Assembly (NCBI GenBank): GCA_030637025.1
Contig: DAOVVV010000017.1
Coordinates: forward strand, 1-53,131
Origin: JAGLHV01 sp023143305 [NCBI: Clostridia bacterium]
GTDB taxonomy: Bacteria > CBDUZB01 > JAGLHV01
Direction: 5' to 3'
Length of the DNA: 53,131 bases
Below are positions 15,713 through 28,400 of this stretch, one piece after another (within the stretch, counting starts at the first letter, position 1; each line of letters begins with the position of its first letter). The translations under genes were made by a program, and so were the position numbers. The notes under the pieces are model-generated. The model did not search any database and had not been told where the DNA came from. It was given only the letters and a program-made list of their open reading frames with translations.

Positions 15713-16141
15713 ATGAAAAAATTAGAATGTATTAACCACCCTGCAGATTTAGGATTTAAAGTTTACGGAAAGAATGTAAAAGACTTATTTAATAATGCAG
15801 CCTGGGGAATGCTTAATATTTTAACCGACTTAGATAAAATAACTCCCCGGGTGACAATAAAAATAGAACTAAAAGCCGCTAATCTGGAAGAACTGCTCAT
15901 AATCTGGTTAAACGAATTACTTTATTACTATAATACCCAACAAATCATTTTCAACAAATTTAAATTTCTAAAAATTAATGAAAGTTATCTTTGTGCCACT
16001 GTTCAAGGAGAAAAAATTAATCCTTCTAAGCATCAAATAAATATAGAAATAAAAGCAGCCACCTACCACCAATTAAAAATTAATTATTTTCCTAAATATA
16101 AAACTTACCCCTGGCAAGTACAAATAATCTTTGATGTATAA
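15713..16141 (+). CDS. Archease
   Basis: 142 residues, the usual archease length. Family features: the N-terminal NHPADLGFKVYGK segment (H and D expected for metal binding), LEELLIIWLNELLYYY in the middle, and the C-terminal block AATYHQLKI...PWQVQIIFDV. Archease activates the RNA ligase RtcB in tRNA splicing/RNA repair; rtcB is not in this window. It lies 40 bases behind gyrA on the same strand. A hairpin with T-run downstream (16284-16348) probably ends the transcript. Confidence 0.85.
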   Translation: MKKLECINHPADLGFKVYGKNVKDLFNNAAWGMLNILTDLDKITPRVTIKIELKAANLEELLIIWLNELLYYYNTQQIIFNKFKFLKINESYLCATVQGEKINPSKHQINIEIKAATYHQLKINYFPKYKTYPWQVQIIFDV

Positions 16142-16189
16142 AAATACAGGCAAATCCTAAATCCCCGCCTTATCTCCTCCAGAGGCGAA

Positions 16190-16224
16190 GTGGACCCGCC
16201 TTACGGACTGGCGGACAGGCAGGC
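16190..16224. repeat. GC-rich palindromic repeat
   Basis: A GC-rich island in AT-rich spacer contains CCGCC-N9-GGCGG (16196-16214) followed by ACAGGCAGGC. Such CCGCC palindromes are common interspersed repeats in candidate-phylum genomes; only this copy is obvious here. Confidence 0.4.
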
Positions 16225-16283
16225 AAATTCCAAATTCGAAACTCAACCTTTTAAACAAAAATAAACGACAGGGTAAAATACAA

Positions 16284-16348
16284 GGGGTCAGGCATTGAAC
16301 GTTGAATAGCTTATATTCAAATTTCAAGGTCTGACCCCAATTTTTTTA
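16284..16348 (+). terminator. Inverted repeat with T-run (terminator or REP-like)
   Basis: GGGGTCAG (16284-16291) pairs with CTGACCCC (16331-16338); the arms extend through TTGAA/TTCAA with two mismatches, and a run of seven T follows. It sits between the convergent archease and PilZ genes and would terminate the plus-strand transcript. Long arms framed by GGGGTCAG are also typical of dispersed REP-type repeats. Confidence 0.5.
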
Positions 16349-16370
16349 TCAAAGGATAAAGCAGAGGTTT

Positions 16371-16826
16371 TTATTTTTTCCTTTTTTTCAAATGTCCTTT
16401 TATGGTTTGAGAACAAAGCGCATAATAAGAACACTTTTTAAAACAAATATTTTTCTCACCGTTAAGATGTCTCATTTTACAATGGTGAAAATCTTTAGCC
16501 ATTTGATTAATTTTATCTTTCACCGCTTCACTCAATTTAGTAAAACCGATACCAACAGTATATGTCCCTGTTTTTTCTTCTACTCTAACTATTTTTCCTA
16601 CTACTTTTTTGATTTTTAATCCGGGAATATTTATGCTTAATTCCAGTAAAGATTTTTCCGGTAAAGGAATAAAAGTAATTACTACCACCCCTCCGGCACT
16701 CAAATCCATCATAATCCCCGGAACACCTTCCTTAATCTCACAGGAAGAAACTTTTAACATAATAGGCTCAACCAAATCAGAAATAATCGGGAACCTGGAA
16801 TGTTTTCTTCTTTCTTTTTTAATCAT
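16371..16826 (-). CDS. PilZ-domain protein with C-terminal cysteine cluster
   Basis: 151 residues. The PilZ c-di-GMP-binding signature is present: RKHSR (RxxxR form, residues 7-11) and DLSAGG (D/NxSxxG form, about residue 40), followed by beta-strands of the PilZ barrel ending near residue 110 (VGIGFTKLSE). The C-terminal tail has four cysteines spaced C-x11-C-x3-C-x5-C, preceded by HH, which could bind zinc or an iron-sulfur cluster. The tail is not part of PilZ itself. The protein would be a cytoplasmic c-di-GMP receptor. It lies downstream of a PilX-like gene that has a GEMM riboswitch, so the same second messenger is likely read twice in this region. Confidence 0.8.
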   Translation of the reverse strand: MIKKERRKHSRFPIISDLVEPIMLKVSSCEIKEGVPGIMMDLSAGGVVVITFIPLPEKSLLELSINIPGLKIKKVVGKIVRVEEKTGTYTVGIGFTKLSEAVKDKINQMAKDFHHCKMRHLNGEKNICFKKCSYYALCSQTIKGHLKKRKK

Positions 16827-16979
16827 ATTACCCTTTCAATAAAAAGCTTTATTTTAGATTTATTTATCTTTAATATACAAAATTACTTTTTATTTGACAA
16901 GGAAAAAGTTTGAATTTTTTTTTAAATTGGCTGGAAAAAAAATATTCCCTTAAAATTATTCCGGCAAACCTATAATAAT

Positions 16980-18065
16980 TTAAATTTTCTCCTCTCTCCA
17001 TGATAATATTTTAGTTTTAAGTACACCACCCGGTAATCCGTTTAAAGCATCATTATAATCCATATCTGCCGTTCCTAAAGAAGTAAAACTATGCACGTTC
17101 ATCGACCCATCAGCAAGACTGGTTCCTGATAAAATAGCATCATAAGCAGGAGCATATACAGCAGCATAAAGATCCGCAGTACCGTCAAACCTTACAGTAC
17201 TACCAACCGGCCCTGTTCCATAAATAAGAAAGTTAGTTGCATCCAGCGAGGAATTTACAATACCTGTGCCCCCGGCATCAATATCACCGGAACAATATAT
17301 AATCACCGGACCAAGTGTCGAATCTATGGTTATCCTGGCAGTTCCTCCAATATTTATAGAACTACAAATATAAGTCCCTGCAGTTAAAACTAAATCAGCC
17401 AGCCCCACTAAATTTATCTCCCCCAGATCAGAAGTATAGACCCCGGGCATTTCCGGAGGTTCAAAATCATCTACTGCAGATTCTCCTTCGCTAACCGTTC
17501 CGGTAACCCGTTCAGGATTTGTAACAGTACCACTGGTAATAACATCCCCCTGGATCTGGCAATCTCCCCCGGAAAGGTCAACCCCCCCGGCACCGGCAGT
17601 AATAGCAAAATCAAAAGGGGCAATATCTATTCGTTCAGCTGTAACAACAATTTTTCTTTTTTCCTGTATATTAGTCACATTAGGCACATAACCAATAGCA
17701 CTTATCTGATATCGGCCATCCGGCAATACAGCACTTTCTCCGGGAGGAATAGAACCCGGGGTAGAAACACCTATAGAATACTGTCCTGAAGATAAAGTGT
17801 CCACAGATCCTACCGATTCCGAAGCAAAAGAGGAAAAACCGGTATAACCGGGATTATTAGTTACTTCGACCATTGCCCTTTTTATTCCGGCGTCAGCCAC
17901 CTGAACGGCCCGAATTGTTGCTTTTGCTCTTACCGTCGCTTCCGTTTCTATTTTAGTTAAATTGGATAAACCCAACCCAACAGGAATTAAAACTAATACC
18001 ATTAAAACAACCAGAGGCAGAACCATGCCTTTTTCCGTTAATAAAAATATGTTTTTTTTATCCAT
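16980..18065 (-). CDS. PilX-like minor pilin (riboswitch 1 controlled)
   Basis: 361 residues. The N-terminus is a class III pilin-like signal with Glu-Lys-Gly before the hydrophobic stretch (TEKGMVLPLVVLMVLVLIPV) and AVQVADAGIKRAMVEV, the PilX N-terminal pattern. The remainder is low-charge, beta-rich, with GDIDAGGTGIVN-type stretches of a beta-helix/DUF7305-like passenger, and ends in ILSWREEKI. The paralogue at 20335-21408 ends in the same nine residues. PilX-like proteins belong to the minor-pilin tip complex of type IV pili or to type II-like pseudopili. It is the first gene after promoter, aptamer and terminator at 18117-18344; a PilZ gene follows. Confidence 0.75.
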   Translation of the reverse strand: MDKKNIFLLTEKGMVLPLVVLMVLVLIPVGLGLSNLTKIETEATVRAKATIRAVQVADAGIKRAMVEVTNNPGYTGFSSFASESVGSVDTLSSGQYSIGVSTPGSIPPGESAVLPDGRYQISAIGYVPNVTNIQEKRKIVVTAERIDIAPFDFAITAGAGGVDLSGGDCQIQGDVITSGTVTNPERVTGTVSEGESAVDDFEPPEMPGVYTSDLGEINLVGLADLVLTAGTYICSSINIGGTARITIDSTLGPVIIYCSGDIDAGGTGIVNSSLDATNFLIYGTGPVGSTVRFDGTADLYAAVYAPAYDAILSGTSLADGSMNVHSFTSLGTADMDYNDALNGLPGGVLKTKILSWREEKI

Positions 18066-18116
18066 TTTTTTCCCCCTTTATTTAAATTTTTCTAATTTAT
18101 AAATTATATATTATCA

Positions 18117-18270
18117 ATAAAAAAACCGGGTTAATCCTTGTTTTCTACGGATAACCCGGTCTTTAATATACCTTTTTTTACTTTCCATTTCCCTTGGGTA
18201 GCCCAGCCTCCCTGTTATGTATCCGGGACCGTAGCTTTGTGCCTCCGCCTTACGGCGAATTTACCTTTTT
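18117..18270 (-). ncRNA. GEMM-I cyclic-di-GMP riboswitch 1 with terminator
   Basis: Read on minus, the aptamer (18268-18192) has GGTAAA, a stem closed by a GTAA tetraloop (CGCC-GTAA-GGCG), then GGCACAAAGCTACGG, a second hairpin and the 3' strand GGCTGGGCTACC. These are the conserved parts of GEMM-I (c-di-GMP-I) aptamers. The base matching G20 of the Vibrio Vc2 aptamer is G, which predicts c-di-GMP. About 30 bases later an intrinsic terminator follows (18117-18161): CCGGGTTATCC pairs with GGATTAACCCGG, then seven T. The PilX-like ATG is about 50 bases downstream. Confidence 0.85.
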
Positions 18271-18315
18271 CCAATATTTTTAAAAGAACTATTTCTTTAA
18301 CTATCTCTCATTATA

Positions 18316-18344
18316 AAAATAGCACACTTTTTAAGAACTGTCAA
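18316..18344 (-). promoter_or_regulatory. Promoter of riboswitch 1
   Basis: TTGACA (18339-18344), 17-base spacer, TATTTT (18316-18321) on minus. The start would fall about 40 bases before the aptamer, so the leader is transcribed independently of the upstream HAMP gene, which ends at 18366. Confidence 0.6.
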
Positions 18345-18365
18345 GCCAAATTCCACCACAGCTAT

Positions 18366-18929
18366 TTATACGATAAAAGCACCATTAATATTCTTTATCT
18401 GCCTGACAATATCTTTTAGAGCGTCACACATTTTAACAAAATCTTTAACATCCGAAGGATTTTTAGAAAGGTCTTCAACGACTTTTTCTATTTGTTTACT
18501 AATCAGTTCTATATTAGCTCTTTCTTTTACAATTTCTTGCTGTATAAAGTTAATAGCCTCATTTACTTTTTGGGATAGTTCCTGTAATTCGTCATTTTTA
18601 CGTAAAACCACTTTCTGATTAAAATACCCGCCTCTCAACTTATCAAAAATCTTTTCGAAACGGTAAATAGGCCCGGCAACCCGGTGGGATACTAAAATAC
18701 TAAGCCCTACTCCAATAACAATAAGGAGTAAAATCCAGGATGTCATTAATACCTTAAAAACATTAATTTCCACTAATTGGTTAACAATAGCTCTATCCAG
18801 ACAATAAGTTCCCCAAGACACAACCATTCCGGTCAAAAGCATTAATAATAATATAATTATGGTAAACCTCATCTGAAACTTCATCTTTATAAGTTTAATT
18901 CTTCTCTTATTTCCACTTTTTTCTGACAT
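18366..18929 (-). CDS. HAMP-domain membrane protein without output domain
   Basis: 187 residues. Two transmembrane helices (about 22-42 and 63-82) with a short loop between them, then a HAMP domain starting HRVAGPIYRFEK (about 85-135), then a coiled coil (QQEIVKERANIELISKQIEKVV). There is no kinase, GGDEF/EAL or chemoreceptor signalling tip. It may relay a membrane signal to a partner protein. It follows the PilW-like gene by 23 bases on the same strand and is probably the last gene of the riboswitch 2 operon. Confidence 0.7.
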   Translation of the reverse strand: MSEKSGNKRRIKLIKMKFQMRFTIIILLLMLLTGMVVSWGTYCLDRAIVNQLVEINVFKVLMTSWILLLIVIGVGLSILVSHRVAGPIYRFEKIFDKLRGGYFNQKVVLRKNDELQELSQKVNEAINFIQQEIVKERANIELISKQIEKVVEDLSKNPSDVKDFVKMCDALKDIVRQIKNINGAFIV

Positions 18930-18952
18930 ATTTTCTCCTTTCTAATTATCCC

Positions 18953-19630
18953 TTAATTTAAATTAGGAGGACTTACTCCTCCTCTTAAAATAAACTCTTC
19001 TCTTCCTGCCGCAGTTCCTTCCTGCCCAACTCCCTTTTTCACTGTCAAAGTAATTTCAATGTAACGGATATCATAACGGTCATTACCTACAACCGGATTC
19101 GTCGGTAAAGGATTTCCGTTAATATCTTTATACATAAAATTTAAACCTGTTACTTCCACTGCCGAAAAAGTAAAATTTTTATTCTCAGTTATTCCACCTG
19201 CCTTTACCGAATGTCTTTGAACTTTTGTAGTCCCCACAGGAATAGAAAAAGTAATTGTTTCCGTATCTACATTAACCGCCCAATTAAGGTCATTATCTTT
19301 AACTCCATCGCGATTTAGATCCCGCACTACAGCGTTAAAAACAATTCTATCATCTTCAGCAATATCTATAGCCGGCCCATTCCCCCCACTACCAACATCC
19401 GTATTCCCAAATACATACCCTGCTTGCCGTATTTCTCTAATCATTTGCTGTAAAGCAATTCGGGCATTCTGTTGAACGTCTCTCTGTTGATCTGTCTTTA
19501 TCCATAGCCTTGTACTCCCTTGATATACAGAAGCAAAAGCCAACATAATCATCCCCAAAATAGCCAAACTAACCATTGTCTCAATTAAGGTAAATCCCCT
19601 ATTTTTCTTTTTTACCAATTTACCACTCAC
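18953..19630 (-). CDS. PilW-like minor pilin
   Basis: 225 residues. Class III pilin/prepilin signal KKKNRGFTLIETMVSLAILG with cleavage expected after Gly and Glu at mature position 5. PilW-type features follow: RRDVQQ-like segment QQRDVQQNARIALQQMIREI, then RQAGYVFG and a C-terminal block (DRYDIRYIEITLTVKKGVG). It overlaps nothing but lies 12 bases after the PilV-like gene. The PilW-like protein at 24191-24877 shares the same block order, so the PilV-PilW pair is duplicated in the window. Predicted inner-membrane minor pilin, processed by a prepilin peptidase not encoded here. Confidence 0.8.
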   Translation of the reverse strand: MSGKLVKKKNRGFTLIETMVSLAILGMIMLAFASVYQGSTRLWIKTDQQRDVQQNARIALQQMIREIRQAGYVFGNTDVGSGGNGPAIDIAEDDRIVFNAVVRDLNRDGVKDNDLNWAVNVDTETITFSIPVGTTKVQRHSVKAGGITENKNFTFSAVEVTGLNFMYKDINGNPLPTNPVVGNDRYDIRYIEITLTVKKGVGQEGTAAGREEFILRGGVSPPNLN

Positions 19631-19642
19631 TTGCCGTCTCCC

Positions 19643-20146
19643 TTATGGTTTAGCAATAATTGTTTCCAGTGTTACTGTCCTCAATAATGAAGAATCTATA
19701 GATTCAACGAAAACAGTTACAGTTTTATAACTGCTAACACCTACAACCGTAGTCACTACCTTATATTTCCGATTACCCCTAACCCCTGCTGCACCGGTAG
19801 AAAGAATAATCGGGTTAAACGGATCAGGATAAGTATTATCAGGACCTAATTGAATTTCTCGATAATTAGCCGTTTCAATAGTCCCGGAATCATTAGTATC
19901 ACCTATTTCATACCCGGTACTGGTAGAAGCAACTCTTTTTACTATTTCAATAAATTCTTCTGCTCGCTGAGTAGCTAATGTATCCCATCTATCCCGCACA
20001 TTACCTTTCATTACCATACTCAACACAGGAATCAGTCCTAATAAAACAAGAGATAAAAGGACCATTCCTACTATTAATTCTATAAGAGTCATTCCTCTTT
20101 GTTCTCTTATTTTACTAACTTTTTTTCTTTCCATCATTATTTCCAC
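19643..20146 (-). CDS. PilV-like minor pilin
   Basis: 167 residues. Prepilin signal EQRGMTLIELIVGMVLLSLV with cleavage after Gly and Glu5 of the mature pilin. After the helix comes GNVRDRWDTLATQRAEEFIEIVKR, and a repeat of this pattern (TRDRWETFAVAQTRELIETIKR) occurs in the paralogue at 24891-25370. Both also contain GDTND. It lies 189 bases behind the PilX-like gene 20335-21408 and 12 bases before the PilW-like gene, which fits a PilX-PilV-PilW-HAMP operon. No separate riboswitch precedes it. Confidence 0.8.
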   Translation of the reverse strand: MEIMMERKKVSKIREQRGMTLIELIVGMVLLSLVLLGLIPVLSMVMKGNVRDRWDTLATQRAEEFIEIVKRVASTSTGYEIGDTNDSGTIETANYREIQLGPDNTYPDPFNPIILSTGAAGVRGNRKYKVVTTVVGVSSYKTVTVFVESIDSSLLRTVTLETIIAKP

Positions 20147-20334
20147 CTATAAAAATCATTTCTAAAATTAAATCAAAACACACACTATTTTTCTATTAAA
20201 CAATATATCTCTATTTTTTAAATCTGTCAAGAAAATTCGGGCAGGAATTTGTTTGGTGATTCTAATAACTTTTAAATTTATCACCAAAAAAATACTTTTC
20301 TTTTAAAAAATTTACGACTTTAAAAAAGGCCCTA

Positions 20335-21408
20335 TCATATTTTTTCTTCTCTCCAGGAAAGTATTTTTACCTGATCTATTCCCCCAACCCCTCCTATGCC
20401 GTTTAAATTTGCATCATAGATCATATCCGGATTTCCATTACTATCATACTTATAAACATTCATAGCACCTGTAACCAGATTATTTCCTCTTGAAAAACAG
20501 TTATACTTAGGAGCATAAACAGCCGCATAAATATCAGCAGTGCCATGTAAATCTATATTACCACTTTCTCCCGTACCATAGAGAAAAAACTTGGTGGCAT
20601 CTGCTCCGGTATTTACAAAACCAGTCCCTGCAGCATCAATATCACCGGAACAATATAAAAAAACTGCATCCCCTCCGGGGATTGTATTCAGGGTTATTCT
20701 AGCATTTCCCCCGATATTTATAGAAGTACAAGTATAAGTTCCCGGATTTATAGTAAAATTACTATTTCCATTTAGATTTATTACTCCTAAATCTATTGCT
20801 GTTTCCGGAGCAACCAGGGGAGAAAAATCAGCAACTGAAATATCTCCGTCGGTAACTGTCCCGGTAATAGTTACACTACCTTGACTATTTGCGGTACCAC
20901 TGGTAATTACATCCCCCTCTACTAAGCAACTCCCTCTAATATCAATTCCCCCATCCCCCGCGGTAACAGCAAAATCAAATAAACCATGATTGTTGAATGG
21001 TATCCTGTTAACAAAAGCAACAACTTTTATTGTTTCGCTTGCCTGAATCATATCCGGAACATAACCAATGGATTCTATGCCGTAACGATTAGCCGGTAAA
21101 ATACTTCCTTCAAAAGCACTTCCCGGGGTAGAAATATTAATTGTATACTGCCCTGTTGATAAACTTTGTACTGCTCCGGTACCGGTATATGCTGAATTAT
21201 TAACAATTTCAGCCATAGCTCTTTGTATCCCGGCATCAGCTAATTGAAAAGCCCTGATTGTTTTCTTTGCCGATACAACCATCTTTGTTTCTATTTTGAT
21301 TAAATGGGACAAACCCATTCCCACAGGCACTAAAACTAAAATCATTAACAAGACTAATGGTAAAACAATTCCTTTTTCTGAGTGTAAATACATACTTTTT
21401 TTACCCAT
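20335..21408 (-). CDS. PilX-like minor pilin (riboswitch 2 controlled)
   Basis: 357 residues, paralogue of 16980-18065. Prepilin-like N-terminus SEKGIVLPLVLLMILVLVPV, then AFQLADAGIQRAMAEI. The passenger is beta-rich with NGNSNFTINPGTYTCTSINI and GDIDAAGTGFVN, and the protein ends in ILSWREEKI. Likely a large minor pilin or pilus-associated adhesin with a beta-helix-like passenger. It is the first gene behind riboswitch 2; genes for PilV-like, PilW-like and HAMP proteins follow on the same strand. Confidence 0.75.
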   Translation of the reverse strand: MGKKSMYLHSEKGIVLPLVLLMILVLVPVGMGLSHLIKIETKMVVSAKKTIRAFQLADAGIQRAMAEIVNNSAYTGTGAVQSLSTGQYTINISTPGSAFEGSILPANRYGIESIGYVPDMIQASETIKVVAFVNRIPFNNHGLFDFAVTAGDGGIDIRGSCLVEGDVITSGTANSQGSVTITGTVTDGDISVADFSPLVAPETAIDLGVINLNGNSNFTINPGTYTCTSINIGGNARITLNTIPGGDAVFLYCSGDIDAAGTGFVNTGADATKFFLYGTGESGNIDLHGTADIYAAVYAPKYNCFSRGNNLVTGAMNVYKYDSNGNPDMIYDANLNGIGGVGGIDQVKILSWREEKI

Positions 21409-21457
21409 TTTTTTTCCTCCATTTATCTTTGAGTTTAGCCAACTGTTACCGGTAAAT

Positions 21458-21608
21458 AAAAAACCGGATTACCCATTTTGCTACGGATAATCCGGTTTAA
21501 TAAACTTCTTCCTTGATTTTTCTTTTATTTTCGGTAACCCGACTACCCGCCATTATTTAGTGACGAGCCCGTAGCTTTGCGTCCCACCTTTACAGATGGT
21601 TTGCCTTT
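21458..21608 (-). ncRNA. GEMM-I cyclic-di-GMP riboswitch 2 with terminator
   Basis: The aptamer (21608-21531, minus) reads GGCAAACC, a stem with GTAA tetraloop (CCATCT-GTAA-AGGTGG), GACGCAAAGCTACGG, a second hairpin and GTCGGGTTACCG: a textbook GEMM-I. The Vc2 G20 equivalent is G, so c-di-GMP is predicted. The terminator (21458-21498) pairs CCGGATTATCC with GGGTAATCCGG, followed by six T. The 5' arm of the terminator resembles the aptamer's 3' strand, so the terminator's 3' arm could pair with either. Confidence 0.88.
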
Positions 21609-21639
21609 ATCGATATTAATTTATACTTCACTCATTTTT

Positions 21640-21668
21640 AGTATAGCATCATTTTTGCAATTCGTCAA
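21640..21668 (-). promoter_or_regulatory. Promoter of riboswitch 2
   Basis: TTGACG (21663-21668) and TATACT (21640-21645) with a 17-base spacer on minus, placing transcription start about 25 bases before the aptamer. Confidence 0.6.
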
Positions 21669-21727
21669 GAGCAAAATTAAGTTTTTATACAATTTTTTTC
21701 ATAGTTACTTCAAATTATTAGTAAAAT

Positions 21728-21788
21728 AATAGGAATTAGACCCGAACTTCAGATAAAGACTATTAAAATTTCAGGTTTAACTCCTATT
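21728..21788 (-). terminator. Imperfect inverted repeat between pilin transcripts
   Basis: AATAGGAATTAGACCCGAA (from 21728) mirrors TTCAGGTTTAACTCCTATT at the other end with a few mismatches, enclosing about 22 bases. It lies just after the stop of the small membrane protein gene (21793) and upstream of the riboswitch 2 promoter. It probably ends the upstream transcript; there is only a weak T-run, so a REP-like repeat is the alternative. Confidence 0.45.
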
Positions 21789-21792
21789 CATT

Positions 21793-22098
21793 TTATCTTT
21801 TCTTTTTTTTATTTTTCTTTTTAGGAGATTTCAACAATATCCATCCAATAACCACACCTGCGATTATAATAAAAACTAATCCTTTATTGCCCTTCTCAAT
21901 TTCTTCTTTTTTCTCTTCGGGCTTTACCTCTGCTTTTTCCCCGGAAACAACAGTCTCTACCGGTGCTTCCACTTTTTTACTTTCCAGACGCCTTTCTACC
22001 GGAGATGAACCAACTATTTTAACCCCGGCAGCTCCTCTTGCAAACAACATTCCTAATACCAAAAAACTAAAAATTACTAGCGAAAATTTCTTTATCAT
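21793..22098 (-). CDS. Small secreted protein with C-terminal membrane anchor and basic tail
   Basis: 101 residues: an N-terminal signal peptide (about 1-24), a charged linker rich in E, K, P and V, one hydrophobic segment (LVFIIIAGVVIGWILL, about 73-88) and a very basic end (KSPKKKNKKKKR). This layout resembles tail-anchored or sortase-like C-terminal signals, but no LPxTG or PEP motif is seen. It lies 50 bases downstream of the large PilX-like gene on the same strand, so it is probably co-expressed under riboswitch 3. No known family was recognised. Confidence 0.6.
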   Translation of the reverse strand: MIKKFSLVIFSFLVLGMLFARGAAGVKIVGSSPVERRLESKKVEAPVETVVSGEKAEVKPEEKKEEIEKGNKGLVFIIIAGVVIGWILLKSPKKKNKKKKR

Positions 22099-22147
22099 TT
22101 TTTTCTCTCCTATATTTTTTTAAAACTCATTTGTTTACTACTTTCTG

Positions 22148-23887
22148 TTATTCTCTCCTCCAACTTGGTGCTGTATTAAAATCCAGAACATCCACCTGAT
22201 AAGCACCCAAAGTAGGAAATTTCGGTGGGATTATGCCTTGTTTAAACCTAACATCATAAACATATTGATCTGAATAACCATGTTCAAATGCTCCCGTAAG
22301 ACTATTAAAGACTCCATGATAACCCATTTGGTCACCAATTACTCCTCCTAATAAATTCAAATCTCCCCGTAAACCACAACCAAGATAATTTTCTACCTCA
22401 AATATACCCTGCGGAGTCATAATAGAGGCTTGTATTGTAATATCATTAGGAGCAGTAGTTCCAATCAAAATATCATCATTCCATGAAAGGATACCTAAAA
22501 CATTAGTTGCAGCTGGATTTCCAAGGGGATCATCTGCATATTGAATATGATTATCAATAGTAATCCCCCCGGTACTAGCAATAGTAACCTGGGAATCTTG
22601 CTGAACCGTACCGGAAAGAGCAGCTACTTCACCGCCGTTACTAAAAATTACCCCATTAGTAGTTCCGGTGTAATTATAAGTATTTGTACCGTCAACAAAC
22701 TGAGTATTTCCGGTATTCATATCAACAGAAACAGTATATGTCGTCCCATTATTATGGTCAATACTATATACTGCCGTATTTCCCAGATTTGCCGTACTCA
22801 TAGTGAAACTATTTACATCCCCCTGAATATAAATACCCCCGGTTACATTAGCTCCATCATTAGGAACATAAACTCCATTAGCATAAGCAGGTATCACAGA
22901 TCCTTCGATTAAACCCAATGCCGTAGTTTGCTGTAGTTGCATTTGAACAAGTGCAGGCATATCAATTATATCTACACCTCTCTGAAACCCTGCGTTAAAT
23001 ATCGGCCGATCATCACCTGCACTAGCCACTAGATCACCATTATCATAAAAATCCGCATCTAACTGACCCCCGTGAAAAAAATTAGCTGTAGCTGCCGAAC
23101 AGGTAACTTCATCATTGAAAGTACCGGAAATACCATTGTTCGCGGGATCACCAAAAAAATTGAGTTCATCGTTAAAATGAACCGGACCGGTAAAATCATA
23201 ACGGGAGGTAAACCAATTATTATTCTGTAAACTGTTACAGAAAAGATTATACCGGGTAAAACTCGGTTTTTGTATTGTTATCTCAAATTCACCACCGGGG
23301 CGAACAGCATTGGGACCAAGCGAATCTATTACCAGAGTAGAAGTTTTATCTGCTTGTGTCTCGTATTTTACTGTACTATTTGTTATTATTCGATATTTAA
23401 AATAAAAATGGGCTATAGGATTATCCGGACCTCCTCCATGCGGATCCCACCCGGAAGCCTGAGTAGTACTAATAACAACCATAGTGCTGTAACTTCCTGT
23501 TTCTAGATTTTCTGAAAAAGTAAGGGTTGCAGAAGTCATTCCAATATTAAATGTATCAGTCGAAGCAGAATTAACCATACAATCTCTAACAAAATTCATC
23601 GGATTACTTGTATAAGCCTGTATTGCCGCAGAAACATAATTATTTGTATTCAAGTTTTCTTTCAGATCTTCATTTATGCGCTTTTTTAATTCTATCAATC
23701 CTCTATTAGCTGCCCCTTCAGCAAGTTGATCCGCCTGAGCAGAAACTTTACTTTGTCTTACCACCTTAGTCTCTTGTTTTAAAAAAAACACTAATCCTAT
23801 AGCCACCGGAACAAAAACAACAGCTATTAAAAAAACCATAGGTAAAGCTATCCCTTTCTCATTTAAACCCTTTTTTATCCCTAACAT
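22148..23887 (-). CDS. Large PilX-like minor pilin (riboswitch 3 controlled)
   Basis: 579 residues. Prepilin-like start NEKGIALPMVFLIAVVFVPV, then SAQADQLAEGAANRGLIEL, the PilX N-terminal arrangement. The long passenger is rich in N, T, G and S, has few lysines, and contains IQGDVNSF and GILSWNDDILIG; the ILSW element recurs at the C-termini of the two shorter paralogues. It is probably a surface-exposed minor pilin or adhesin. It is the first gene after riboswitch 3, which is the one with A at the ligand-recognition position. Confidence 0.72.
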   Translation of the reverse strand: MLGIKKGLNEKGIALPMVFLIAVVFVPVAIGLVFFLKQETKVVRQSKVSAQADQLAEGAANRGLIELKKRINEDLKENLNTNNYVSAAIQAYTSNPMNFVRDCMVNSASTDTFNIGMTSATLTFSENLETGSYSTMVVISTTQASGWDPHGGGPDNPIAHFYFKYRIITNSTVKYETQADKTSTLVIDSLGPNAVRPGGEFEITIQKPSFTRYNLFCNSLQNNNWFTSRYDFTGPVHFNDELNFFGDPANNGISGTFNDEVTCSAATANFFHGGQLDADFYDNGDLVASAGDDRPIFNAGFQRGVDIIDMPALVQMQLQQTTALGLIEGSVIPAYANGVYVPNDGANVTGGIYIQGDVNSFTMSTANLGNTAVYSIDHNNGTTYTVSVDMNTGNTQFVDGTNTYNYTGTTNGVIFSNGGEVAALSGTVQQDSQVTIASTGGITIDNHIQYADDPLGNPAATNVLGILSWNDDILIGTTAPNDITIQASIMTPQGIFEVENYLGCGLRGDLNLLGGVIGDQMGYHGVFNSLTGAFEHGYSDQYVYDVRFKQGIIPPKFPTLGAYQVDVLDFNTAPSWRRE

Positions 23888-23925
23888 TTTTTTCTACCCC
23901 CTCTTTAAAAAAATAACGCATCGAC

Positions 23926-24034
23926 AAAAAAACCGGATTACCAATTTTTTTTAACTTTCGGTAACCCGGCTTTCGCTATTACTTAATAGTGGCCCGTGGC
24001 TTTGCGTCTTCGTTTTACAACGAATTTGCTTTTG
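23926..24034 (-). ncRNA. GEMM-I riboswitch 3, possibly cGAMP-type, with overlapping terminator
   Basis: The aptamer (24034-23958, minus) reads AAAAGCAAA, a stem TTCGTT-GTAA-AACGAA, GACGCAAAGCCACGGGCC, a hairpin and AAGCCGGGTTACCG. The base matching Vc2 G20 (the base before GCAAA, position 24030) is A; in Geobacter GEMM-Ib aptamers A here goes with recognition of 3',3'-cGAMP. The terminator (23926-23970) uses the aptamer's own 3' strand: CCGGGTTACC pairs with GGTAATCCGG, then seven T. Aptamer and terminator are therefore mutually exclusive, which predicts an ON switch. Confidence 0.85.
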
Positions 24035-24079
24035 TCTCTTAAAATTTTAAGGCACTATATCTACTTTCCCTTTACTATA

Positions 24080-24107
24080 AGGATATCACTTTTTTCTTCT
24101 TTGTCAA
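24080..24107 (-). promoter_or_regulatory. Promoter of riboswitch 3
   Basis: TTGACA (24102-24107), 16-base spacer, TATCCT (24080-24085) on minus, lying between the PilW-like gene's stop at 24191 and the aptamer. The PilX-like gene thus has its own start separate from the PilV-PilW pair upstream. Confidence 0.5.
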
Positions 24108-24190
24108 CAGAAAACAGTATTTATTATTATTTACCAAAAAGAAATGTTTCCGTTTTTAAAATCTTTGCGAAAAAAAATAAAAAGTTATTT

Positions 24191-24877
24191 TCACTGCTTT
24201 AAATTAGGCGGACTGACTCCCGAGGTTAATGTTATTTCTTCATATCCTGCAGCTGCCTTTTTGTCTCCTGCTCCTTTTTTTACCGTTAAATTAATTTCGA
24301 TATAGCGAATATTATATCTATCATTACCAGAAATCGGAAATGTAAAGACATTTCCTGACTCGTCTCTATATTTAAATTCAAGATTTTCCACCCCCACTTG
24401 CGGCAAAGTAAAATCCATATCAAGAACTCCATACGCAGATACAGAACGTTTTTGAATTTTTTTTCTGGAAGTACCGGAAATAGGCATCATAGAAAAAGTT
24501 ACCGTCTCCGTATCTCTATTAACCGACCAGGTAGTAGTATCTTCTTTAAGTCCATCCCCATTTACATCCCTGATTACTGCATTAAAACTAATTCTATTCT
24601 GCTGGGCTATATTAATTGCCTGTCCAATACCGGGGGGTATGTCTGTTGAAGCTCTATTTCCATAAATATATCCCGCCTGTTTTATATCCTTAACCATCTG
24701 ATCCAGTGCTATTCGGGCATTCTGTTGAACATCCCGCCGCTGATTTGATTTGAACCAGACTTGTTGATTTCTTTTTTGCACCAAACTCCCCATCAATACC
24801 ACCACAGATAAAATAGCAACACTAATTATTACTTCTAACAAAGTAAAACCTTTTTGTTTTCTGTCTTTCTTTCGCAT
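24191..24877 (-). CDS. PilW-like minor pilin
   Basis: 228 residues, paralogue of 18953-19630. Prepilin signal KQKGFTLLEVIISVAILSVV (Glu5 present), then QRRDVQQNARIALDQMVKDI, KQAGYIYGN and a C-terminal block DRYNIRYIEINLTVKKGAG. The block order matches the other PilW-like protein closely. It lies 13 bases after the PilV-like gene and is expected to be co-transcribed from the promoter at 25408-25435, not from a riboswitch leader. Confidence 0.8.
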   Translation of the reverse strand: MRKKDRKQKGFTLLEVIISVAILSVVVLMGSLVQKRNQQVWFKSNQRRDVQQNARIALDQMVKDIKQAGYIYGNRASTDIPPGIGQAINIAQQNRISFNAVIRDVNGDGLKEDTTTWSVNRDTETVTFSMMPISGTSRKKIQKRSVSAYGVLDMDFTLPQVGVENLEFKYRDESGNVFTFPISGNDRYNIRYIEINLTVKKGAGDKKAAAGYEEITLTSGVSPPNLKQ

Positions 24878-24890
24878 TTTTTTCTCCTCT

Positions 24891-25370
24891 TTACGGTGAA
24901 GAAAGTATCGTTTGCAGTGTTACCGCTTTCAATAATGTTTCTGTGGAAGAACCTAACGGCTCTACCCAAACGGTTATGGTCTTATAGCTCGATGTTCCAA
25001 TAGGTGTAGTAATTACCCTGTAATGTCTATTAACCTTCATCGTTTTCGCACCTGAAATAAAAGTAATCGGATTATTCGGGTCGGGGTGATTTCCATCGAC
25101 AAGAGTAAGCTCTTGATATCCTGTAGTATTATTGAGAAGAGCATCGTCATTGGTATCACCATTTATATACCCGGTCGGCGTAGAAGCTATTCTTTTTATG
25201 GTTTCAATTAATTCGCGGGTTTGTGCTACCGCAAAGGTTTCCCATCTATCCCGGGTATTAACTCGCATCATCGCTATAAACATAGGCATAAGACCCATTA
25301 ATAGGGTAACTAAAACAACCATAGCAATAATCACTTCCATTAAAACCATCCCTCTACTGTTTTCTTTCAT
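24891..25370 (-). CDS. PilV-like minor pilin
   Basis: 159 residues, paralogue of 19643-20146. Prepilin signal NSRGMVLMEVIIAMVVLVTL, followed by TRDRWETFAVAQTRELIETI and a short beta-rich C-terminus with WVEPLGSSTETLLKAVTLQT. First gene of a PilV-PilW pair behind a TTGACA promoter; unlike its neighbours it has no riboswitch. Confidence 0.8.
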   Translation of the reverse strand: MKENSRGMVLMEVIIAMVVLVTLLMGLMPMFIAMMRVNTRDRWETFAVAQTRELIETIKRIASTPTGYINGDTNDDALLNNTTGYQELTLVDGNHPDPNNPITFISGAKTMKVNRHYRVITTPIGTSSYKTITVWVEPLGSSTETLLKAVTLQTILSSP

Positions 25371-25407
25371 TTTTTTATTACCTCTTGTTTTTCTATATAT
25401 ATATAAA

Positions 25408-25435
25408 ATAATACTCTTTTTTTTCTATTTGTCAA
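25408..25435 (-). promoter_or_regulatory. Promoter of the upstream PilV-PilW pair
   Basis: TTGACA (25430-25435), 16-base spacer, TATTAT (25408-25413) on minus, in the short gap between dnaE and the PilV-like gene. No aptamer follows. Confidence 0.55.
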
Positions 25436-25461
25436 TGAGAAAAAAACTGTTCTCATTAATT

Positions 25462-28400
25462 TTATACCTTTATTTCCACGCTTTTTTCACCAAGAATTTT
25501 TTTTATTTCCAAAATTAATTCTTCTGAAGGAAAAACACGGCTCATTGAATCAATTATCACATCTTTTTTTTGCGGCACACTAAGATTAAAAATTACCGGA
25601 CAGTTCCCTTCATTTTGCTCTATTACTTTTTTTAACGAATGCAAAATTTCTTCTTTATTAAGAGTATCCGGTCCTATTTTCAGATAAAGACTCTTTATAT
25701 TTCTCTGCCGGGCTAATGATAAAGATATAATTTCATCAGCTAAAATTTTACCCCGTTCTTCACGCCTATCTATCTTTCCCTTTACCAGAACAATCGCATC
25801 TATTTTCAAAGATTGACTGATCCCATTGTTATAATTTCTGGGAAAAATTATTACTTCTATTTTATCTTTTAAATCTTCCAGAATACATACAGCCATTAAT
25901 TCGTTTTTCCTGGTGGTAATTCTTTTAATATGAGAAATTAGTCCTCCTACATTTACAATATCTCCATTATCATTTTCCTGATGATGTAATTGGCTAATAT
26001 TATGGGTAGAGTATTTTTCTATTTCTTCTACATAATCTTTAAGCGGATGCCCGCTAAAATAAAAACCCAAAACTTCTTTTTCATAAGCAAGAAGTTTGTT
26101 TCTGGACCATTCTTTTTTTTTCTCGGATAATGTTTTATTTTGGTTTTGCTCAGATATTTTTTTTTCTTCATCCATTATTTCAAATAGTGATGTTTGTCCT
26201 ATTATTTTATCCTTTTGTCTGCTGCTCGCTTCATTTAAAATTTCATCCAGTTCTTGCATTAATTCTGACCGATAAACACCCAAAGAATCAAATGCACCGG
26301 CTTTAATCATACTCTTGATTACCTGCTTATTTACCTGATATAAATCCACCCGGAAACAAAAATCATAAAGAGACTTAAAATGACCTTCTTTTTTTCTTGC
26401 CGCCACCAAGGAAGTGATTGATCCTTGCCCTACATTTTTTATACCTAAAAGCCCAAAACGAATTCCTTCTTTTTCAATTACAAAATACTGAAAACTACTC
26501 TTAATATCCGGAGGCCAAACAGGAATTTTCATCTTTTGGCATTCATTGATATATTGTACCATTTTATCTGTATTATTAATTTCACTATTTAAAAGAGCGG
26601 TCATATATTCCAGGGGATAATTTGCTTTAAGATAAGCAGTTTGATAGGAAATCAGGGCATACGCCGCAGAATGGCTTTTATTAAACCCATATGCTCCAAA
26701 TTTAGACATCGTATTAAAAATTTTATTTGCCGTTTTAGTTTTTATTCCTTTTTCTTTAGCCCCTTTCATGAATTCGTTTCGTTGTTTTTCCATCTCGTCT
26801 AAATCTTTTTTTCCCATAGCCCGGCGTAAAATATCCGCCTGAGCTAAACTAAATCCGGCTAAATCCTGAGCTATACGCATCACCTGTTCCTGATATACAA
26901 CAATACCATAGGTTTCTTTTAAAACAGGTTCTAATAACGGATGGTCGTAAACAACCTTTACTTTTTTATGTTTTCTTTTAATAAATTCATCCAACATCCC
27001 GCTTCCAATAGGTCCCGGACGATATAAAGCAAGCAAAGCAATTAAATCAAAAAACTCTGCCGGTGCCATTTTACGCAACAGGTCTTTCATCCCGGAACTT
27101 TCTAATTGAAAAATTCCTGTTGATTCGGCTTTGCAAAGAAGTTGATATGTTTTCTCATCGGTTAAAGGAAAATCTTCTTCTGTATTTATTTTTTCGTTTT
27201 TTTTGTTTTCTTTAATTAAATTTATTGTTTTTTGAATTACAGTAAGCGTACGCAGTCCGAGAAAATCCATTTTTAAAAGACCTAATTTTACTAAACTCTT
27301 TCCCTCATACTGAGTAGTAATAATATCTTTAGACCCTTTAGCAAAAGGGACATAATTAGTCATATCATCTTTAGAAATAACTATTCCTGCTGCATGCACA
27401 CCTGTATGCCTTTTCAATCCTTCTAGTTTAGAGGAAATTTTTATTAAACGAGCAATTTCTTCATTTTCTTTTGCCTGTTTGGCTAATTCTTCCACTTTTT
27501 TTAATGCTGAATAAATACTTTCTCCAAAAGGAATTTGTTTAGCAATTTTATCTACCTGGGATAAAGGAATATTTAATACCCGGCCTACATCCCGAATAAC
27601 TAAACGCGCCTGCATACTTCCAAAGGTAATAATCTGAGCAACATTCTTTTCTCCGTATTTATTCTTTACATAATTTATTATCTCTTCTCTCCCTTCATCC
27701 GAAAAATCTATATCCAGATCCGGCATAGAAACCCTGTTGGGATTTAAAAATCTTTCAAATAAAAGGCCGTATTTTAAAGGGTCAATATTAGTGATTTCTA
27801 AAGTATAAGATACGACACTCCCTGCACCTGAACCCCTTCCCGGACCAACAGGAATGTTACGCTGTTTTGCATGCTGAATAAAATCCCAGACAATTAAAAA
27901 ATAAGCGGAATATCCCATCTGTTTAATAATATCAAGCTCATATTGCAAACGCTTCTCTATCAGGGAAGAACCCAAACCATAGCGTTTCTTTACTCCTTCC
28001 CTGCACAATTTCTCTAAATAAGAATCAGGAGAAAATCCGGAAGGAACATTATAATGAGGCAAATAAATTTCCCCAAATTCTAATTCTAAATTGCATTTTT
28101 CCGTAATTTCAATAGTATTACTTATGGCCTGGGGAACATAAGCAAATAATTGTTTCATTTCTTCCGGAGATTTAAAATAAAACTCTTCTGTGCTCAAACG
28201 CATCCGGGTAGGATCATCAATAGTCTTACCAGTGCCAATACCTAATAAAACTTCATGACTTACAGCATCTTCTTTAAAAAGATAATGGGTATCATTGGTA
28301 GCGACCAAAGGAGCATTGCATTCTTTGGATAAGGGAAGGAGATTTTTTATTATTTCTTTTTGCTCACTAATCCCATGGTCCTGGAGCTCTAAATAGAAAT

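What the first reader, a model, noticed from the sequence alone, without database searches (positions are those of the whole stretch)
16371..24107. Three PilX-like genes each behind their own GEMM-I riboswitch and terminator
Within 8 kb three separate promoter-aptamer-terminator leaders each precede a PilX-like minor pilin, while the PilV/PilW pair at 24191-25370 has a plain promoter. A PilZ protein lies at the end. This points to second-messenger control aimed at the PilX-like, probably surface-exposed, subunit and not at the whole pilus. Aptamer motifs are seen directly; the regulatory logic is inferred from the GEMM-I family.
Basis: partly seen in the sequence, partly recalled or inferred. 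Interest (0 to 1): 0.8.

Follow-up and report, generated by a model that had tools for sequence, protein, structure and literature searches.

The report
Riboswitches swapping rival pilin-like subunits
Three pilus-subunit-like genes in a little-known bacterium each sit behind an RNA sensor for a signalling nucleotide, and the RNA anatomy suggests the signal turns one of them on while turning the other two off.

Summary
Three c-di-GMP-I (GEMM-I) aptamers, each behind a promoter-like site and before a terminator, precede three PilX-like genes. Neither PilV/PilW pair has one. In three related genomes, 9 of 9 PilX-like genes with a visible leader have an aptamer (one degenerate); 0 of 10 PilV/PilW genes do.

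In leader 1 the aptamer's 3' strand is the terminator's 5' arm, so ligand should turn PilX1 ON. Leaders 2 and 3 have a separate terminator plus a helix between the aptamer's P3 5' strand and the terminator's upper arm and loop, so ligand should turn PilX2 and PilX3 OFF. Both helices covary across lineage copies (87.5% and 91.3% of cells paired; 0 of 500 shuffles reach either covariation score). PilX1-type genes have the ON form in 3 of 3 copies, PilX2/3-type the OFF form in 6 of 6.

Best reading: a nucleotide-driven swap of pilin-like subunits. Polarity is inferred, not measured. Leader 1's ligand is uncertain: it has A at position 20. New variant of a known kind.

The parts
24891..25370 (-). 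PilV-like minor pilin 1 (PilV1), promoter-like site 25435-25408, no aptamer
   Evidence: ORF; weak sub-cut-off type_IV_pilV hit; promoter-like site; no Rfam hit
24191..24877 (-). PilW-like minor pilin 1 (PilW1)
   Evidence: N_methyl PF07963 37.3 bits
24080..24107 (-). promoter-like site of leader 1 (TTGACA-16-TATCCT, TG before -10)
23957..24040 (-). GEMM-I aptamer 1 (leader of PilX1), position 20 = A
   Evidence: RF01051 64.4 bits, E 2.2e-10; position letters
23926..23971 (-). ON-type terminator of leader 1: 5' arm 23971-23960 is the aptamer's own 3' strand, 3' arm 23942-23931, then U tract
   Evidence: covariation; energy gap
22148..23887 (-). PilX1: 579-aa PilX-like protein, DUF4900-like (below cut-off)
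   Evidence: orthologs 79% and 62% identical in G002
21793..22098 (-). small 101-aa protein with hydrophobic segments, follows PilX1
   Evidence: 66% identical over 90 aa in G002:C72; no family
21640..21668 (-). promoter-like site of leader 2 (TTGACG-17-TATACT, TG before -10)
21529..21614 (-). GEMM-I aptamer 2 (leader of PilX2), position 20 = G; P3 5' strand GCTACGGG at 21575-21568
   Evidence: RF03167 66.2 bits, E 1.6e-13
21458..21498 (-). OFF-type separate terminator of leader 2; antiterminator strand TCCGTAGC at 21487-21480 pairs with the aptamer's P3 5' strand
   Evidence: terminator; pairing; folding sweep; energy gap
20335..21408 (-). PilX2: 357-aa PilX-like protein with DUF7305
   Evidence: PF23981 49.8 bits
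19643..20146 (-). PilV-like minor pilin 2 (PilV2), promoter-like site 20230-20202, no aptamer
   Evidence: N_methyl 28.2 bits
18953..19630 (-). PilW-like minor pilin 2 (PilW2)
   Evidence: N_methyl 37.4 bits
18366..18929 (-). 187-aa membrane protein with weak similarity to sensor-kinase linker regions ('HAMP-like' is my label)
   Evidence: sub-cut-off NCBIfam hits; conserved in G002 and G003
18316..18344 (-). promoter-like site of leader 3 (TTGACA-17-TATTTT, TG before -10)
18193..18274 (-). GEMM-I aptamer 3 (leader of PilX3), position 20 = G; P3 5' strand CTACGG at 18234-18229
   Evidence: RF03167 59.1 bits (cut-off 59), E 1.8e-11
18119..18163 (-). OFF-type separate terminator of leader 3; antiterminator strand CCGTAG at 18150-18145
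16980..18065 (-). PilX3: 361-aa PilX-like protein with DUF7305
   Evidence: PF23981 52.8 bits
16371..16826 (-). PilZ-domain protein, promoter-like site 16900-16872, no aptamer
   Evidence: PF07238 39.6 bits; follows PilX3 in G002:C191 and G003:C34 too

Best explanation
The cluster is a cyclic-dinucleotide-controlled exchange switch for minor-pilin-like subunits. PilV and PilW are made from ordinary promoters. Each PilX-like gene is made only if RNA polymerase passes an intrinsic terminator governed by a GEMM-I aptamer. In leader 1 the terminator consumes the aptamer's 3' strand, so without ligand the terminator forms and PilX1 is off; ligand holds the aptamer together and PilX1 is made. In leaders 2 and 3 the terminator is a separate hairpin. 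Without ligand, the P3 5' strand of the aptamer pairs with the terminator's upper 5' arm and loop as soon as these are transcribed; this antiterminator delays the hairpin and PilX2/PilX3 are made. Ligand locks P3, frees the terminator, and PilX2/PilX3 stop. A rise in the messenger would therefore replace PilX2/PilX3 by PilX1 on a shared PilV/PilW base, while the neighbouring PilZ protein could add a protein-level response. Shown here by computation: aptamers, the two architectures, their covariation, their conservation by gene type. Inferred: ligand, sign of the response, and that the three proteins occupy the same place in a pilus.
For: Three Rfam hits with significant E-values. Two main architectures among the 43 lineage matches, sorted by my reading: 20 with a shared-arm terminator, 16 with a separate terminator and P3 complement, 4 with another separate terminator, 3 with none. 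OFF helix on 16 leaders: 87.5% of 128 cells paired, covariation 0.288 against 0.187 shuffled, 0 of 500 shuffles as high, slid partners at most 54.7% paired. Its column pair 44-139 reads A-U in 13 and G-C in 3. The aptamer base of that pair is unpaired in P3 in the Rfam structure, and no single rival helix holds both columns; in one of the three changed leaders (G003:C34) the partner base is also unpaired in the terminator fold. ON helix on 20 leaders: 91.3% of 240 cells paired, 0.217 against 0.155, 0 of 500. Free-energy gaps: leader 1 at full length favours the terminator by 7.5 kcal/mol over a shut aptamer; in leader 2 an open fold is favoured by about 9 and in leader 3 by about 3 before the terminator's 3' arm is out, falling below 1 at +65. 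PilX1-type genes are ON in 3 of 3 copies, PilX2/3-type OFF in 6 of 6. GGDEF domains 8/9/7 per genome and secretion/pilus ATPases of PF00437 6/7/7 show that the messenger enzymes and such motors exist.
Against: No expression or binding data. At full length the terminator is the favoured fold of the OFF leaders even without ligand (terminator base paired 0.66 in one and 0.98-1.00 in 14 of 15), so antitermination must be kinetic. For leader 2 the program does not predict the lower part of P3 even in the aptamer alone, so its 9 kcal/mol gap is against other aptamer folds. A pseudoknot in which antiterminator and lower terminator stem coexist is not excluded by these nested-fold methods. Column 139 is also paired inside the terminator fold in 13 of 16 leaders, so the terminator could explain part of the change on that side. 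In the shuffle control no shuffle matched the observed value in 8 of 15 OFF leaders, 1 to 4 of 20 did in six (3 of 20 for leader 3), and 8 of 20 in one whose value was mis-indexed by my script; one further leader scored low (0.19). The covariation score of the OFF terminator itself is reached by 61 of 500 shuffles. G002's PilX2 leader has lost part of the P3 complement and its PilX2 is truncated; G003's PilX2 aptamer is degenerate (39.1 bits). Leader 1 has A20, so its ligand may be cGAMP or either dinucleotide. Only three genomes of the lineage were drawn, so copies are related and independent events few (at least two double changes at columns 44-139 by my reading). That PilX1, PilX2 and PilX3 are interchangeable in one filament is not shown.
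Confidence: 0.66

Rival explanations
1. Two messengers, two directions: leader 1 (A20) is a cGAMP-type switch that turns PilX1 on, while leaders 2 and 3 (G20) sense c-di-GMP and turn PilX2/3 off, so the two subunit types answer different signals.
For: Position 20 is A in leader 1 (window and G001) and G in leaders 2 and 3. In print, the G20A mutant of class I binds cGAMP and position 20 is called a selectivity factor (passages). Some GGDEF domains of the lineage carry Asn in place of the Asp of the GHxxGD motif together with a GGDEF signature; Hypr enzymes have Ser at their selectivity position (passage). That the two positions correspond is my recall.
Against: The PilX1 orthologs in G002 have G20 in both copies, so A20 is not a fixed trait of the PilX1 switch. 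Only 4 of the 43 lineage copies have A20. The GGDEF variants have Asn, not the Ser/Thr reported for Hypr enzymes.
Confidence: 0.2
2. All three switches work in the same direction; the P3-to-terminator pairing of leaders 2 and 3 stabilises the terminator (a pseudoknot) without ligand instead of blocking it, so ligand turns all three genes on, as with Geobacter GEMM-Ib.
For: A pseudoknot is topologically possible because the antiterminator leaves the lower terminator stem free (columns).
Against: The separate terminators are already strong alone (downstream segments -22.8 and -21.3 kcal/mol for leaders 2 and 3), and the pairing shares columns 135-137 with the terminator's upper stem. The separate-terminator layout is that of Cd1, described as a transcriptional OFF switch.
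Confidence: 0.15
3. The leaders are ordinary GEMM-I switches of a large c-di-GMP regulon and the differing terminators are neutral variation without regulatory meaning.
For: GEMM-I upstream of pilus and adhesion genes is known elsewhere (passages), and copies in this lineage are many.
Against: Architecture follows gene type across three genomes (PilX1 ON 3 of 3, PilX2/3 OFF 6 of 6), and both switching helices covary.
Confidence: 0.1

Closest known systems
pilM GEMM-I (cGAMP) riboswitch of Geobacter metallireducens, an ON switch (PMC9262584; abstract, introduction part 1 of 2, sections 15 and 18, and passages seen)
   Same: Leader 1 has the same layout: the aptamer's 3' strand is part of the terminator, so bound aptamer and terminator exclude each other. 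Its A at position 20 is the letter I recall for cGAMP-type switches.
   Different: pilM is a cGAMP switch before a polycistronic pilus locus; leader 1 serves one PilX-like gene (with a small gene after it) and its G002 orthologs have G20.
Cd1 class I c-di-GMP riboswitch of Clostridioides difficile, an OFF switch (PMC9262584 as above; PMC6366702, passages seen)
   Same: Leaders 2 and 3 have a separate terminator that can coexist with the aptamer, and a competing antiterminator that uses an aptamer strand.
   Different: Cd1's antiterminator is described as strands T + A + H, A being the strand that pairs with the aptamer's 5' strand; here the antiterminator is the aptamer's P3 5' strand with the terminator's loop and upper 5' arm.
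C. difficile flagella/type IV pilus swap by class I (OFF) and class II (ON) riboswitches (PMC6366702, PMC11477304; passages seen)
   Same: One messenger drives opposite responses of surface organelles through riboswitches.
   Different: There the two directions belong to two different riboswitch classes and to two organelles; here both are class I and act on related subunit genes inside one pilin cluster.
Vibrio cholerae Vc1 and Vc2 (PMC6366702; passage seen)
   Same: Two class I switches in one genome that respond in opposing directions.
   Different: Neither V. cholerae switch acts by transcription termination, and they lie before gbpA and tfoX-type genes.

Membership tests
c-di-GMP-I (GEMM-I) riboswitch, RF01051 / clan CL00126 | Score above the Rfam gathering cut-off with full-length match | tested here: met
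   Three full-length hits; the third passes RF03167 by 0.1 bit, its G001 twin passes RF01051 with 55.8 bits (cut-off 35)
c-di-GMP-I (GEMM-I) riboswitch, RF01051 / clan CL00126 | Ligand-contact letters G20, A47, C92 (Vc2 numbering) | tested here: inconclusive
   Leaders 2 and 3: G, A, C; leader 1: A, A, C (read by pattern). Numbering recalled and checked against the contact list in PMC7288161; the three positions are named in PMC11218506
c-di-GMP-I (GEMM-I) riboswitch, RF01051 / clan CL00126 | Ligand-dependent structure change | not testable with these tools
   Needs in-line probing or transcription assays
c-di-GMP-I-GGC variant (RF03167) | G at position 47 (my reading of the name and of the model consensus GACGCGAAG; not taken from a paper) | tested here: not met
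   All three window aptamers have A at position 47 although two score best with RF03167; not filed as this variant
GEMM-Ib (cGAMP) riboswitch | A at position 20 (recalled; the G20A mutant binding cGAMP is) | tested here: inconclusive
   Met by leader 1 and by G001:C125, G003:C179 and G002:C56 (4 of 43 lineage copies), not by leaders 2 and 3; binding not tested
Transcriptional ON riboswitch (pilM-like layout) | Aptamer 3' strand is the terminator's 5' arm | tested here: met
   Leader 1; on 20 lineage leaders 91.3% of cells paired
Transcriptional OFF riboswitch (Cd1-like layout) | Separate terminator plus antiterminator that uses an aptamer strand | tested here: met
   Leaders 2 and 3; on 16 lineage leaders 87.5% of cells paired. 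The sign of the response itself was not tested
PilX minor pilin (PilX_N, PF14341) | PilX_N above gathering score | tested here: not met
   16.7 bits against 25.5 in PilX2, no hit listed for PilX1 or PilX3; called PilX-like only
PilZ domain protein (PF07238) | PilZ domain above gathering score | tested here: met
   39.6 bits against 22.5

The most novel reading that the evidence does not exclude
One riboswitch class, with two opposite termination platforms placed in the same 8-kb cluster, lets a single cyclic dinucleotide replace one pilus subunit by another on a constitutive PilV/PilW base; the OFF platform uses a form of antiterminator that reaches into the aptamer's P3 5' strand.
Probability: 0.5. 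Interest if true: 0.78.

Novelty: new variant of a known kind. Interest (0 to 1): 0.62.

Why it matters
c-di-GMP is usually described as switching whole organelles on or off. If the polarities are right, this cluster would change which minor subunit is made, by RNA alone, from one signal. It also gives ON and OFF platforms on aptamers of the same class in one genome, a natural test set for how a riboswitch changes sign, and it makes 'does c-di-GMP retune the composition of a pilus' a question that a simple transcription assay could start to answer.

Tried and rejected
Filing aptamers 2 and 3 as the c-di-GMP-I-GGC variant: rejected, position 47 is A. A fourth GEMM leader in the window: none found. 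A single regulatory logic for the three leaders: set aside because of the two terminator layouts. Using the equilibrium fold of the full OFF leader as proof of switching: rejected, it shows the terminator with or without the aptamer. Structure-based naming of PilX1 and PilX2: models were poor (mean pLDDT 38.1 and 37.3), so no fold search was run. Class I leaders in other genomes as a comparison set (17 leaders): too few per genome and often unclear; no claim made from it. A GEMM element near the distant PilX1 relative L089: none at gathering threshold.

Errors of mine: the 'closed' rows are invalid (the constraint emptied the fold); one search replaces them. In one search the value for G001:C75 is mis-indexed by a regular expression; one search gives 1.00 for it. 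The sweep measures pairing of the P3 5' strand with any downstream base, so values for G003:C2 and G002:C193, high already at +20, are not specific to the antiterminator. In one search part of the output was cut; four of the missing leaders were reprinted.
Full report
What is there. The window carries, on the minus strand from 25370 down to 16371, the order PilV1, PilW1, [aptamer 1] PilX1, a 101-aa protein, [aptamer 2] PilX2, PilV2, PilW2, a HAMP-like membrane protein, [aptamer 3] PilX3, PilZ. Rfam finds exactly three hits in the 53-kb window at gathering thresholds, all in this stretch, with nothing further of the class at E up to 1 in 16000-26000. Promoter-like sites precede each aptamer and also PilV1, PilV2 and PilZ; that scan as a whole is close to its shuffles, so single sites are only plausible.

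Where it comes from. The own assembly is not held. The nearest genome, G001, shares 60% of sampled 31-mers and has a syntenic contig (C323, 8596 bases) on which PilX1 is 99.3% identical to the window's and the other eight cluster genes found (PilV1 cut by the contig edge) are identical in protein. The contig has the length of JAGLHV010000039.1, 'MAG: bacterium isolate RS_2_16 ROV157', which the PilX1 search returned at 99%; in the same way G002 matches JAUVLC01, 'Clostridia bacterium isolate CSMAG_496'. Of 60 genomes drawn around G001, only G002 and G003 are of the same genus and the other 57 are 'same domain' only, so the lineage is isolated among held genomes.

A large GEMM-I regulon. RF01051 matches number 12, 19 and 12 in G001, G002 and G003; 42 of these 43 pass the cut-off. 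I sorted all 43 by reading their leaders. Twenty have a terminator whose 5' arm is the aptamer's 3' strand. Sixteen have a separate terminator plus a complement to the aptamer's P3 5' strand. Four (G002 C142, C183, C48; G003 C333) have a separate terminator of another design. Three (G001 C125, G002 C122, G003 C354) show no such terminator and end 2 bases before the start codon of a gene; the G003 one encodes a subtilase. Two of the twenty (G003 C112 at 16431, G002 C169 at 18483) pair poorly with their terminator arm and were kept in the counts.

The two platforms by covariation. For the sixteen OFF-type leaders (alignment A1) the P3-to-terminator helix pairs in 87.5% of 128 cells, has 13 cells changed on both sides and a covariation score of 0.288, reached by 0 of 500 shuffles; sliding the partner by 1 to 3 columns drops pairing to 24-55%. 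Two of the five measures, the number of pairs with double changes (102 of 500) and of further pair types (353 of 500), do not exceed shuffles. Column pair 44-139 is A-U in 13 and G-C in 3 sequences; the three belong to two gene lines (PilX3 of G003, and the 142-aa-protein leaders of G002 C137 and G003 C5). The aptamer base is unpaired inside P3 in the Rfam structure. Its partner is paired within the terminator fold in 13 of 16 leaders and unpaired in three, among them the changed G003 C34. No single rival helix holds both columns, so the paired change is best explained by the antiterminator, while the terminator may share the constraint on one side. Columns 140 and 141, next in the helix, read U-A in 14 and C-G in 13 of 16 with their aptamer partners and fall in the terminator loop in the folds shown. 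For the twenty ON-type leaders (A2) the aptamer-terminator helix pairs in 91.3% of 240 cells, covariation 0.217, 0 of 500 shuffles (there too the pairs with double changes, 76 of 500, and pair types, 230 of 500, do not stand out). The OFF terminator's own covariation score is reached by 61 of 500 shuffles. The tool warns that related sequences can exceed all shuffles without structure; the slid controls carry more weight.

Energetics. For leader 1 the free ensemble is 7.5 kcal/mol below that of a shut aptamer with free downstream at full length (+32). For leader 2 the open ensemble is favoured by 9.1-9.4 kcal/mol from +50 to +56 past the aptamer and by 0.9 at +65; for leader 3 by 2.9-3.2 from +50 to +62 and 0.8 at +65. 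The minimum-energy folds at +56 show the P3 5' strand paired with CCGTAG in both. In the sweep against shuffled downstream sequence, 13 of 15 OFF leaders examined (of 16; the degenerate one left out) reach 0.63 or more as computed, and 0 of 12 ON leaders examined (of 20) exceed 0.05; no shuffle reached the observed value in 8 of the 15, but 3 of 20 did for leader 3. At full length the terminator is favoured with or without a free aptamer. So ligand would have to bind before the terminator's 5' arm emerges, and control would be kinetic.

Polarity follows gene type. PilX1-type genes (G001 C323, G002 C72 and C140) have the ON platform in 3 of 3. PilX2/3-type genes (G001 two, G002 C72 and C191, G003 C34 and C346) have the OFF platform in 6 of 6, of which G002 C72 has lost part of the complement and G003 C346 has a degenerate aptamer. 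A further DUF7305 hit (G002 C174) runs off a contig edge, so its leader cannot be seen. No PilX1-type gene was found in G003, an assembly rated 86% complete. No aptamer precedes any of the ten PilV/PilW genes seen, one of them cut by a contig edge and one starting 122 bases from an edge.

Ligand. Using Vc2 numbering recalled and checked against the contact list in PMC7288161 (passage), 40 of the 46 leaders listed (43 lineage copies plus the three window copies, which repeat G001) read G20-A47-C92, five read A20-A47-C92 (leader 1 counted in window and G001, plus G001 C125, G003 C179, G002 C56) and one is degenerate. Position 20 is reported as a selectivity factor, and G20A allows cGAMP binding (PMC9262584, PMC6274999 and PMC7288161, passages). 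Leader 1 may therefore answer cGAMP or both. PilX1 orthologs in G002 have G20. GGDEF domains number 8, 9 and 7; of the 20 fetched (of 24), one set present in all three genomes and one more in G002 carry Asn where canonical domains have the Asp of GHxxGD. I do not know what that does.

Comparison with what is known. pilM of Geobacter (ON) and Cd1 of C. difficile (OFF) have the two layouts (PMC9262584; abstract, introduction part 1 of 2, sections 15 and 18). In C. difficile the functional class I switches are uniformly OFF and class II ON; V. cholerae has two class I switches of opposing direction, neither by termination; B. thuringiensis Bc2 is a class I ON switch acting by read-through (PMC6366702, passages; also PMC11477304, and PMC11218506). 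I found no paper describing class I switches of both signs by termination inside one pilin cluster in the searches and 79 of the held open-access library; most hits were seen as listings only, and subscription papers are mostly not held, so this is a limited statement.

Verdict. The larger point is that the control appears to have two signs. I rate the swap model at 0.66 as the best explanation overall and 0.5 in its strict single-ligand form.

Noticed in passing
G002:C183 3664-3751 (L052), also G002:C142, G002:C48, G003:C333: High-scoring GEMM-I aptamers (75-82 bits) with a different separate terminator; the C183 one precedes a protein matching PADLOC candidate PDC-S02 (148.7 bits) with a YhcG/NucS-type nuclease domain, so a cyclic-dinucleotide switch may control a defence-like gene. 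The C142 and C48 proteins had no PADLOC match.
   Followed up: partly
G001:C125 1077-1160, G002:C122 4965-5047, G003:C354 4011-4093: Aptamers end 2 bases before an ATG with no terminator and no visible Shine-Dalgarno between; the G003 gene encodes a subtilase with a C-terminal sorting-like domain. Possibly translational control by the aptamer itself.
   Followed up: no
G001:C393, G002:C170, G003:C360, G002:C131 (GGDEF loci L116, L117, L118, L108): GGDEF domains with Asn in place of the Asp of the GHxxGD motif, next to an intact GGDEF signature; candidate altered nucleotide specificity.
   Followed up: partly
G001:C38, C75; G002:C137, C152, C193; G003:C2, C5: A family, similar by eye, of 142-153-aa secreted-type proteins, several copies per genome, each behind an OFF-type GEMM-I leader; the one member scanned has no Pfam match; the C75 copy is cut by its contig end.
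   Followed up: no
G003:C346 314-396 (L076): Degenerate GEMM-I aptamer (39.1 bits, 3' part eroded) upstream of a PilX2 ortholog (68% identical) with other neighbours; looks like a decaying switch.
   Followed up: no
G002:C72 4242-4997 (L058): PilX2 ortholog of 251 aa, without the DUF7305 part, behind an aptamer that has lost part of the P3 complement.
   Followed up: no
G001:C31 4467-4608, G003:C336 3944-4085, G002:C178 2822-2901, G002:C9, G003:C69: By eye, aptamers with long insertions or a second copy of the aptamer 3' strand just before the terminator, as if that strand had been duplicated to make the terminator arm.
   Followed up: no
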